Source: Synechococcus sp. Nb3U1 (GTDB lineage: Bacteria; Cyanobacteriota; Cyanobacteriia; Thermostichales; Thermostichaceae). Taken from it: a DNA stretch of 64,000 nt. The notes beneath the pieces are model-generated. The model saw only the letters and a program-made list of their open reading frames with translations. It did not search any database and was not told the origin of the DNA. This document shows, piece after piece, positions 29,074-32,097 of this stretch. A program made the position numbers and the translations under genes. Position 1 is the stretch's first letter. The number at the start of each line of letters is the position of its first letter. The stretch is from the NCBI RefSeq assembly GCF_021533835.1, contig NZ_JAKFYQ010000001.1, forward strand, positions 778,079 through 842,078, in the 5' to 3' direction.

Positions 29074-29934
29074 ATGACGACTGGGAAAGAATCTGTTGCG
29101 CTGGTGCGATCAGAGGTTCGTCGGCGGTCACAGGTTCTGGGAACACAGGTGATCAGCCAGGGGAATGCCGCCCGGCTCGGCGTAGTCAGCGAAGTCTGGG
29201 CTGATTTGGAAGCCAAGCAGGTATTGGTGTTGGGGGTATTGGAAAAAGCCTTTGCCAGCTCTCCCCGCCTGCTGGAACTGCGGCAAGTGACGGCTTTGGG
29301 CCAGGATGCGCTGCTCGTACCCAGTGATGAAGTCTTCGACAATTTGGATTTAGACGGGCTTAGCCGCGTAGTCGGTAGTGAAGTGGTGACCGAAGAAGGG
29401 ATTCGCCTCGGCAAAGTCAAGGATTTTGAATTTAACTCCGTTTCTGGTCTGATTACGGGTTTGGTGCTCTCTAATCTCGGCCTGACCTTTTTGCCCGGAT
29501 TCATTCTCAGCACCTATCTCCTTTCAACTGATGAGATTGTTTCTATCGGCGGGGATCGCCTGATTGTTGAAGATGGGGCAGAAACCCGCCTCACTCAACT
29601 GGCCAGAGGTGTTCTGGAAACTCTCGGGGTTGGCAAACCTCCTTGGGAAGTTAGATCTGGCCCTACCCCGGCTCTCCCCAGTGCTGTCGATAGCCCCGTT
29701 GTGGAGGAAGATTACGACGAAGAATATGACGAGGAGTACGAAGCCGAAGAAGAGGACATCTACGCACAAGACGAGCCAGAACCCGAACCTGTGCGCCCAC
29801 GTCGGCCTGAACCTGCACCCGAGCAGCCGGAATGGGAGCAAGAGTACGCCGAAGAAGATGCCCCGCCAGAGCCAACCTCTGAATCTCCTGCTACAGATGC
29901 CTGGGAAGACAAGCCCGAGGAGCCACAGACTTAA
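29074..29934 (+). CDS. PRC-barrel domain protein with acidic tail
   Basis: This 286-residue protein has two PRC-barrel domains (about residues 18-85 and 95-175), seen as VISQGNAARLGVVSEVWAD and EVVTEEGIRLGKVKDFEFN. These small beta-barrels are known from the H subunit of purple-bacterial reaction centres and from RimM. The C-terminal third (about 205-286) is very acidic and proline-rich, with runs of Asp/Glu/Tyr, and is probably disordered. Related two-PRC proteins occur across cyanobacteria without a settled function. It stands alone between the glycosyltransferase and the kinase, and an 11-bp tandem repeat begins at its stop codon. Confidence 0.85.
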   Translation: MTTGKESVALVRSEVRRRSQVLGTQVISQGNAARLGVVSEVWADLEAKQVLVLGVLEKAFASSPRLLELRQVTALGQDALLVPSDEVFDNLDLDGLSRVVGSEVVTEEGIRLGKVKDFEFNSVSGLITGLVLSNLGLTFLPGFILSTYLLSTDEIVSIGGDRLIVEDGAETRLTQLARGVLETLGVGKPPWEVRSGPTPALPSAVDSPVVEEDYDEEYDEEYEAEEEDIYAQDEPEPEPVRPRRPEPAPEQPEWEQEYAEEDAPPEPTSESPATDAWEDKPEEPQT

Positions 29935-29976
29935 TTTTTTACTAATTTTTTACTAATTTTTTACTAATTTTTTACT
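29933..29976. repeat. Four tandem copies of an 11-bp unit after the PRC-barrel gene
   Basis: AATTTTTTACT is repeated exactly four times, starting at the TAA stop of the PRC-barrel gene. The T6 runs could act as terminator T-tracts, but no GC-rich hairpin precedes them. Confidence 0.9.
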
Positions 29977-30029
29977 TAATTTGATATCCTAGGTCTGGAT
30001 GTTCTAGGTAGAGCCTGAGCCTGTTGGCG

Positions 30030-31823
30030 CTAACTCATCCCGGCTGACTCATCTCGAAAGTGCGTGGGCCAGGCTGAGCCTGCAGTTTGCTTAACTTTTC
30101 TTAACTGATCAGGTAATGCAAGCGGGGTGAGGAGCCTGTCTTGTGCAGATGCTGCTTTCTCAGGCTCATGCTCGGCCTCGATGAGATCGAGATCCTGCAG
30201 TACCGCCTCACAGGAGGCATAGCGCCGGTTGGGATCCGCCTCGGTCATCTTTTTCAGGATGTGCCAGAGGGTGGGGGGCAAAGGGTACACCTGACACGAG
30301 GATTGACCAGAGGGAGCTTGCCCTGTCAGCATTTCCAGCGTCACTTGGCCGAGAGCATAGAGATCGCTGTTGGGACGGGGTTGGCCTTCGTATTGCTCGG
30401 GTGAGGCATAGCCATCGGTGCCGATAAACATGGAGTAGATGGGTTGATCACCCCTAGAGACGGCGGCTCCGAAGTCCACCAGATTGTAGGTGACCTGGTC
30501 AGGATCCCCTGCCTGCAAGATGTTGGCGGGTTTAATATCTCGATGGATGATCCCGTCTTGGTGGAGATAACTGAGGATGTTGAGCATCTGCCGCAAAAAG
30601 TGGATTGCCTGTGGCGCAGTCCACCGGGATCCCTGAGCCTGCAGCCTATCTAGAGGGGATCCGGGCATAAACTGTTGCACCAAGTAGTGTTGTTGGTCTT
30701 GTTCAAAGTAGGCCAATAGTTGCGGTAGGTGGGGATGGGATCCCACTCGTTCCAGCATTTCTGCTTCCTGTTGAAAGCCCAGTAGAGCGGCTGAGAGCGT
30801 TTCCAGTCCCTGCCACGCCGAAAGGGGGGATCCCGCTTCGCCGGATACCGTTGTTGGGTTGAGTTGCTTCAAGACACACAGGGGCTTTCCAGGGCGATGT
30901 TGATCCCGCACCAAATAGGTACAGCCAAATCCTCCGCATCCAAGGGGACGCTCAATTTGGTAGTGTCCTCCCAACAATTTTGGAGTTTGGCTGGGCAAGA
31001 GGCCCAGTTGCGAGGCCACGGCTAGCTGCGACTGAATGCGAGCCAGGGCAATATCGAAGTTGATCGGCTTGGTGATATAGTCGTTGGCACCCAAGTCAAA
31101 TGCGCCGACAATGCCATCACGGTCATCCATCGCCGAGGCCATAATCACGGGCAAGCGTCCGGTGGAATGCTTCAAACGCAGCAGGTGCAACACCTCGAGT
31201 CCATTCATCTGCGGCATCATGATGTCTAGCACCACCAGGTCAATCGGCTGCTGGGCAACGATCTCCAGAGCCTCTGGGCCACTGCTGGCCTCAATTGCCT
31301 GGTAACCCCGGCTTTTTAGGTAACGGGAGAGAATGCGTCGAGCGGCAGGGTCATCATCCACCACCAGCACAGTGCCTTGAGCCGGCTCTTTCAACTCCGG
31401 CAAACCCAGAACAGGTTCAGGTGCCGGGCTCCCTGCTGAAGGGTGCAGAGGGAGAGGTTCTTCACCCAACCAAGGGCGCAGGCGATCCAGCAGAATGGGG
31501 GGGGCTTCCAGCTTAAACTCGCAGGCAACACACCCTTCCCCATAGGCCCGATCCCGCAAGCTAATCGGATATTCCGACAAGCCCACCACGGGAATTGCGG
31601 CTGTGCTGGGGTTGGTCTTGAGTTGCTGTAGGAGCTTCCAGCCAGCCAGATCACTGAGATCTAGATCCAACAGAATCAAATCGGGATGGCAGAGTACTGC
31701 CATTTCCAAGCTCATACGCAGATCGTCGGTAACTCCAACCTCAAACCCACTGGCCTTCAGGCTGACGTGAATCAATGGCCATCCATCGCCGCCATCGTGG
31801 ATTCCTAAGATTTTTTTCACCAT
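30030..31823 (-). CDS. Hybrid signalling protein: two receiver domains plus Ser/Thr kinase
   Basis: This 597-residue protein has the order REC-REC-protein kinase. REC1 (about residues 1-118) keeps the phosphoacceptor Asp53 and Lys104 but has lost the N-terminal acidic pair. REC2 (about 150-272) is canonical, with D156-158, Asp200 in VVLDIMMPQMNG and Lys252 in ITKP. The Hanks-type kinase (about 288-540) has the glycine loop GCGGFG, Lys319, HRDIKPAN (427-434) and DFG (450-452), so it should be active. The last 50 residues are unstructured. A two-component phosphorelay would thus control a Ser/Thr kinase in cis. The start is ATG 31823; a TTG at 31868 is possible. The partner histidine kinase is not in the window. 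Confidence 0.92.
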   Translation of the reverse strand: MVKKILGIHDGGDGWPLIHVSLKASGFEVGVTDDLRMSLEMAVLCHPDLILLDLDLSDLAGWKLLQQLKTNPSTAAIPVVGLSEYPISLRDRAYGEGCVACEFKLEAPPILLDRLRPWLGEEPLPLHPSAGSPAPEPVLGLPELKEPAQGTVLVVDDDPAARRILSRYLKSRGYQAIEASSGPEALEIVAQQPIDLVVLDIMMPQMNGLEVLHLLRLKHSTGRLPVIMASAMDDRDGIVGAFDLGANDYITKPINFDIALARIQSQLAVASQLGLLPSQTPKLLGGHYQIERPLGCGGFGCTYLVRDQHRPGKPLCVLKQLNPTTVSGEAGSPLSAWQGLETLSAALLGFQQEAEMLERVGSHPHLPQLLAYFEQDQQHYLVQQFMPGSPLDRLQAQGSRWTAPQAIHFLRQMLNILSYLHQDGIIHRDIKPANILQAGDPDQVTYNLVDFGAAVSRGDQPIYSMFIGTDGYASPEQYEGQPRPNSDLYALGQVTLEMLTGQAPSGQSSCQVYPLPPTLWHILKKMTEADPNRRYASCEAVLQDLDLIEAEHEPEKAASAQDRLLTPLALPDQLRKVKQTAGSAWPTHFRDESAGMS

Positions 31824-32097
31824 TACTTTCACCAAGCTGTTGAAATCCGGAAATTCTCTACGCTTCAATTTAAACTATTCAAAGATTTTTCAAAAATGCT
31901 ATAGAGATGCTTGAGTCTATTCCCTGCATCTTCTAGCTCAATTTGATTCTGACCTGCCAAAGCCCTAAAAATACTCGGCAAGATCGCGCAAAGACAGATG
32001 GAAATCGCCCAATTCACGAAAAGCACCTATCTAAAACATATTGAAATAACACTTACGTATCGCAAAAAATACGGATATTCTGGCAAAAGTTGGTTGA

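What the first reader, a model, noticed from the sequence alone, without database searches (positions are those of the whole stretch)
30030..31823. REC-REC-Ser/Thr kinase fusion joins two signalling systems
Two receivers, the first partly degenerate, are fused to a kinase with all catalytic residues intact. This would let histidine-kinase signals gate Ser/Thr phosphorylation in one polypeptide. Receiver-kinase fusions exist but the double-receiver form with one degenerate receiver is unusual.
Basis: partly seen in the sequence, partly recalled or inferred. Interest (0 to 1): 0.6.

Follow-up and report, generated by a model that had tools for sequence, protein, structure and literature searches.

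The report
Orphan double-receiver Ser/Thr kinase response regulator
In a cyanobacterial genome, one gene joins two receiver domains of a bacterial two-component system to an animal-style protein kinase; it looks like a fusion of two neighbouring genes of a known kind of signalling operon that has since lost its sensor, so it is an uncommon but understandable variant of known signalling proteins.

Summary
Window 30030-31823 (-) is one 597-aa ORF: REC1, Pro-rich linker, REC2 and a Hanks-type kinase with all catalytic residues. REC1 keeps Asp53, Ser83 and Lys104, but the first residue of its acidic pair is His9 and Lys104 is followed by Leu. It still models as a receiver fold. REC2 is complete (Asp156/157, Asp200, Ser230, Lys252).

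Relatives explain the architecture. A hybrid histidine kinase (HK-REC-REC), a CheY-like REC and a REC-output protein stand in a row in 29 of 80 fetched loci. The output is a class III cyclase in 9 of 11 third genes tested. In genome G041 the same histidine kinase is followed directly by a REC-REC-kinase. REC1 groups with the operon CheYs (99/91) on a very long branch; REC2 groups with kinase-fused RECs (98/88). The window genome has no close relative of that histidine kinase. A sister genome has lost residues 1-295.

Best reading: an orphan response regulator with Ser/Thr-kinase output, gated mainly through REC2, with REC1 a decaying former CheY. Nothing biochemical is shown. New variant of a known kind, moderate interest.

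The parts
30030..31823 (-). REC-REC-Ser/Thr kinase ORF, 597 aa, ATG at 31823, stop included
   Evidence: collinear with G041 relative from its start
31449..31823 (-). REC1 (residues 1-125), partly degenerate CheY-like receiver: H9 D10, D53, S83, K104-L105
   Evidence: AlphaFold model mean pLDDT 89.1, pTM 0.85; best PDB match DivK 1m5t E 2.9e-10
31380..31448 (-). Pro-rich linker between the receivers (about residues 126-148)
   Evidence: sequence; alignment with G041 and G007
31008..31379 (-). REC2 (about residues 149-272), complete receiver: D156 D157, D200, S230, K252-P253
   Evidence: Pfam 104.4 bits; alignments
30147..30962 (-). Hanks-type Ser/Thr kinase domain with flanks (about residues 288-559): G-loop 295-300, K319, E353, HRD 427-429, DFG 450-452, E476, R534
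   Evidence: Pfam PF00069 113.8 bits; alignments
30939..31888 (-). Stretch replaced by 22 bases at the same place in same-genus genome G005; removes the start, both receivers and the first Gly of the G-loop
   Evidence: blastn of window against L097
32098..33597 (-). Upstream neighbour, GTPase with DUF697 (PF05128), marks synteny with G005; no two-component partner

Best explanation
The gene encodes an orphan response regulator whose output is a Hanks-type Ser/Thr kinase. Shown from sequence: two receivers and a kinase with complete catalytic residues in one ORF. Inferred from relatives: it descends from a three-gene phosphorelay operon (hybrid HK-REC-REC, then a CheY-like REC, then REC-output) in which genes two and three fused and the output is a kinase instead of the usual class III cyclase. 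Inferred: the operon's histidine kinase was lost from this lineage or left behind, REC1 (the former CheY) has drifted fast, and REC2 (Asp200, beside the kinase) is the receiver through which a histidine kinase encoded elsewhere in the genome switches the kinase, probably by changing dimerisation or releasing inhibition. REC1 would now serve mainly as a packing, dimerisation or docking domain. Substrates and phosphate donor are unknown.
For: Domains. Catalytic and receiver residues. Operon order HK-REC-REC, CheY, REC-output in 29 of the 80 loci L001-L080 by my own profiles and reading-frame criteria; these loci were fetched for similarity to this protein, so the sample is biased. Third gene carries Guanylate_cyc in 9 of 11 tested, MetOD1 in 1, HATPase_c in 1. 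G041: HK-REC-REC followed directly by REC-REC-kinase. Tree of 88 receivers: REC1 in a set with 13 operon CheYs and 2 REC1 of relatives (99/91), REC2 in the 8-row set of kinase-fused RECs (98/88). REC1's best phmmer hits outside its own locus are CheY-sized receiver frames (9.9e-15 and weaker), ahead of any longer REC-output frame outside the kinase group (best 2.5e-8). Close relatives of the operon HK: G041 555 bits 56%, G008 509 bits 48%; own genome best 233 bits 34%. Purifying selection on the kinase: dN/dS 0.129 (NG86) window against G005.
Against: REC1 sits on an end branch of 4.11 in a short alignment (130 columns, 88 rows), so its place could be a long-branch effect, and I did not run a clade test. 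REC1 keeps D10, D53 and K104 and may still accept phosphate. The operon HK may be replaced by another of the genome's HKs, and no partner was identified. G005 keeps the kinase at 88% aa identity without receivers, so receiver control may be dispensable. In single-REC paralogues of the genus the acceptor Asp is Glu (3 of 3: G000, G003, G005), which suggests that REC-kinases here can do without phosphorylation. No biochemistry.
Confidence: 0.6

Rival explanations
1. The receivers are structural only: they dimerise or localise a constitutive kinase, and phosphorylation of Asp53 or Asp200 does not matter.
For: REC1 is degenerate. In the single-REC paralogues of the same genus the acceptor is Glu in 3 of 3. 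The operon HK is missing in the genome. G005 lacks the receivers but keeps a kinase reading frame.
Against: REC2 keeps every residue needed for phosphorylation and has a short end branch (0.53), unlike REC1.
Confidence: 0.25
2. The gene is in decay: REC1 erodes after loss of the partner HK, and the G005 copy with its deleted receivers and broken G-loop is the next stage.
For: REC1 end branch 4.11. G005 has lost residues 1-295, including the first Gly of the G-loop. dN/dS of the kinase is about twice that of the neighbouring GTPase (0.129 against 0.057, NG86). Only 1 of 8 family genomes has the full gene.
Against: The window ORF is intact with all catalytic residues, and dN/dS is well below 1.
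Confidence: 0.1
3. Signal flow is reversed: the kinase domain phosphorylates Ser/Thr in its own receivers or in a partner HK, so it tunes a phosphorelay rather than reading it.
For: Ser/Thr phosphorylation of response regulators by such kinases is known (StkP-ComE, PMC6010298 and PrkC-WalR, PMC4478028, seen only as search listings).
Against: The operon position as third, output-bearing gene, with cyclase in most relatives tested, fits output and not input.
Confidence: 0.05

Closest known systems
REC-REC-kinase of genome G041 (L083, 561 aa), next to a hybrid HK
   Same: Same order REC-REC-kinase, collinear, 39% identity
   Different: Both receivers complete; lies directly behind HK-REC-REC, while the window gene is an orphan
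Operon HK-REC-REC, CheY, REC-class III cyclase of filamentous cyanobacteria
   Same: REC1 resembles the CheY; REC2 lies near the third-gene receivers, weakly supported (85/53)
   Different: There separate genes with a cyclase output; here fused with a kinase output and no HK
Single-REC Ser/Thr kinases (G000:C1:854148, G003, G005, G023, G041)
   Same: REC2-kinase part, about 41-46% identity
   Different: One receiver; in the three same-genus copies the acceptor is Glu and the catalytic loop reads HGD
PleD, REC-REC-GGDEF (PDB 1w25 and others)
   Same: Tandem receivers with one degenerate before an enzymatic output; both PleD receivers match in sequence
   Different: Output is a diguanylate cyclase; in PleD the second receiver is the degenerate one (recalled), here the first
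Dual kinases with STK, GAF and HisKA (cbSTKIII, PMC2176072, passages read)
   Same: A Ser/Thr kinase and two-component parts in one protein
   Different: They carry the transmitter (HisKA); no receiver appears in the passages read

Membership tests
Response regulator with enzymatic output | Receiver with acidic pair, acceptor Asp, Ser/Thr and Lys | tested here: met
   REC2: D156/D157, D200, S230, K252
Response regulator with enzymatic output | Receiver accepts phosphate from a histidine kinase | not testable with these tools
   no biochemistry; no close relative of the operon HK in the genome
Hanks-type Ser/Thr kinase | Pkinase domain with G-loop, K, E, HRD, N, DFG, and APE-type Glu | tested here: met
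Hanks-type Ser/Thr kinase | Kinase activity on Ser/Thr | not testable with these tools
   needs assay
Aspartate-less receiver (ALR) | Acceptor Asp missing | tested here: not met
   D53 and D200 are both present
PleD family | REC-REC-GGDEF | tested here: not met
   output is Pkinase; NF007135 130.5 bits against a cut-off of 474
Member of the HK-REC-REC / CheY / REC-output operon lineage | REC1 groups with the operon's CheY and REC2 with the kinase-fused third-gene receivers | tested here: met
   with the long-branch caveat for REC1
Member of the HK-REC-REC / CheY / REC-output operon lineage | Adjacent hybrid HK | tested here: not met
   neighbours are a DUF697 GTPase and a PRC-barrel protein; no other receiver or operon-type HK found in the window and no close HK relative in the genome

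The most novel reading that the evidence does not exclude
A natural series of rewiring is preserved. A cAMP-type phosphorelay operon swapped its output for a Ser/Thr kinase, its CheY and output genes fused (G041), the sensor kinase was then lost or left behind and the CheY half decayed (window), and in a sister lineage both receivers were cut off (G005). The window protein would be a phosphorelay-gated Ser/Thr kinase caught while changing its master.
Probability: 0.45. Interest if true: 0.55.

Novelty: new variant of a known kind. Interest (0 to 1): 0.4.

Why it matters
If REC2 gates the kinase, this is a direct His-Asp to Ser/Thr switch in one polypeptide. Relatives supply ready comparisons: an intact version with its sensor (G041) and a natural receiver deletion (G005). 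It also suggests how a response-regulator output can be exchanged (cyclase for kinase) within one operon type. The specialist surprise is moderate, because receiver-enzyme fusions are common as a class.

Tried and rejected
Frame or assembly artefact: rejected, one uninterrupted ORF, collinear with G041. Unique architecture: rejected. Partner HK by neighbourhood: none found in the window. The hybrid HK at G000:C1:573720 was considered as partner, but it is only 27-34% like the operon HKs and stands before a kinase-WD40 gene. REC-kinase on plasmids: 32 records matched at E 1e-25, 0 covering 80% of the query. Literature: ten searches did not show a paper on REC-REC-Ser/Thr kinase proteins; the library lacks most subscription papers. 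PMC9953108 (section 3.6 and tables read) lists for six Thermostichus strains no kinase-output response regulators, with 2-4 unclassified ones each. PMC2176072, PMC1183210, PMC11032199, PMC9239204 and PMC11863333 were read as passages only. A search for REC-kinases in another phylum failed on a wrong handle and was not repeated. The phylum scans scored only 3 or 4 candidates per genome and the output list was cut, so the counts are minimum counts. No clade test was run for the long REC1 branch. A promoter and terminator scan gave numbers close to the shuffles and was not used.

Full report
Observation. The minus strand of 30030-31823 holds one ORF of 597 aa. Pfam gives two receivers and a protein kinase. 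All catalytic residues of the kinase are present. REC2 is complete. REC1 keeps D10, D53 and K104, has S83 where relatives have T, and has changed E/D to H9, A to E84, Y to C101 and P to L105. Its model has the five alternating strands and helices of a receiver (mean pLDDT 89.1), and the closest solved structure is DivK (E 2.9e-10).

Genome context. The window lies in a 3.49 Mb genome in four contigs. It has 14 Pkinase matches over the cut-off. Intersecting these with the receiver matches, two share a frame with a receiver: this gene and a 469-aa single-receiver kinase at C1:854148. The neighbours are a GTPase with DUF697 upstream and a PRC-barrel protein downstream in opposite orientation. No other receiver and no operon-type histidine kinase was found in the window with the profiles.

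Distribution. In all 8 genomes searched at family level, 4 have a match at E 1e-60, and only the window genome has the full protein. In 59 relatives 6 genomes match. With a REC2-kinase profile, 130 of 386 genomes of the phylum match at 1e-60, but among the listed rows only 6 proteins in 4 genomes (G000 two, G041 two, G023, G003) span receiver and kinase; all other listed rows match the kinase part alone. Only four candidates per genome were scored and the list was cut, so this is a minimum count.

Origin of the two receivers. In 29 of the 80 loci L001-L080 an HK-REC-REC frame is followed on the same strand by a CheY-sized receiver and then a receiver frame of 280 aa or more (my count from its rows, profiles built in that script; loci biased by how they were fetched). 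Of 11 third genes tested with Pfam, 9 carry Guanylate_cyc, 1 MetOD1 and 1 HATPase_c. G008 has HK and CheY without a third gene. G041 has the HK followed directly by an intact REC-REC-kinase. G007 has the HK, then a CheY-like receiver and a REC-kinase in two overlapping frames, with a Pro-rich linker and a run of C between them, so either one gene with a frameshift or two genes.

Tree. Of 88 receivers, REC1 of the window groups with 13 operon CheYs and the first receivers of G041 and G007 (99/91), on an end branch of 4.11. REC2 groups with the 7 other kinase-fused receivers (98/88), on a branch of 0.53. The link of these to the cyclase-type third-gene receivers is weak (85/53). The program warns that the alignment is short and that long rows are placed unsurely. 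Independently, phmmer ranks CheY-sized receiver frames of the fetched loci first for REC1.

Loss of the partner. With the G007 histidine kinase as query, G041 (555 bits, 56%) and G008 (509 bits, 48%) have close relatives. The window genome's best is 233 bits at 34%, and G005's is 232 bits at 41%. So no close relative of the expected partner was found in the window genome.

A natural deletion. In same-genus genome G005 the neighbouring GTPase and the kinase are conserved at about 84-85% of bases, but window 30939-31888 is replaced by 22 bases, removing residues 1-295. The remaining kinase is 88% identical over 255 aa with dN/dS 0.129, against 0.057 for the GTPase and 0.077-0.109 for the parts of the single-receiver paralogue (NG86). 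A pairwise ratio cannot say which lineage was constrained. The direction (deletion in G005) is inferred from the existence of REC-REC-kinases in G041 and probably G007.

A further sign. The single-receiver kinases of G000, G003 and G005 have Glu at the acceptor position and HGD in the catalytic loop, so in this genus receiver-kinases tend to leave classical control. REC2 of the window protein is the exception that keeps all residues.

Mechanism. Shown: the parts and their residues. Inferred: REC2 phosphorylation gates the kinase, REC1 is now mainly structural, and the donor is some other histidine kinase. Rivals are listed with what would refute them. Known biology used from recall: receiver chemistry, Hanks motifs, and the role of PleD's receivers.

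Novelty. Receiver-enzyme fusions are a known kind, and an HK-STK fusion is in print (a passage in PMC1183210). The REC-REC-STK form, its derivation from this operon type and the loss of its sensor were not met in the ten paper searches made (listed in Tried and rejected). New variant of a known kind.

Noticed in passing
window 29932-29982: 11-bp AT-rich tandem repeat (TAATTTTTTAC, 4.5 copies) between the 3' ends of the convergent kinase and PRC-barrel genes.
   Followed up: no
L091 864-6576 (G000:C1 about 571863-577576): A hybrid histidine kinase (Cache-HAMP-PAS-HisKA-HATPase-REC-REC) is followed closely by a Ser/Thr kinase with WD40 repeats: a second link of two-component and Ser/Thr signalling in the same genome.
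   Followed up: partly
L088, L084, L087 (G000, G003, G005): Single-receiver Ser/Thr kinases with Glu in place of the acceptor Asp and HGD instead of HRD.
   Followed up: partly
L082 3-614: A frame that looks by eye like a transposon TnpB-type protein lies beside the receiver-less kinase in G005; not tested with Pfam.
   Followed up: no
L095 5402-6286 and 4326-5837: In G007 the receiver and the REC-kinase overlap in two frames, with a run of C in the linker: frameshift, assembly error or two genes.
   Followed up: partly
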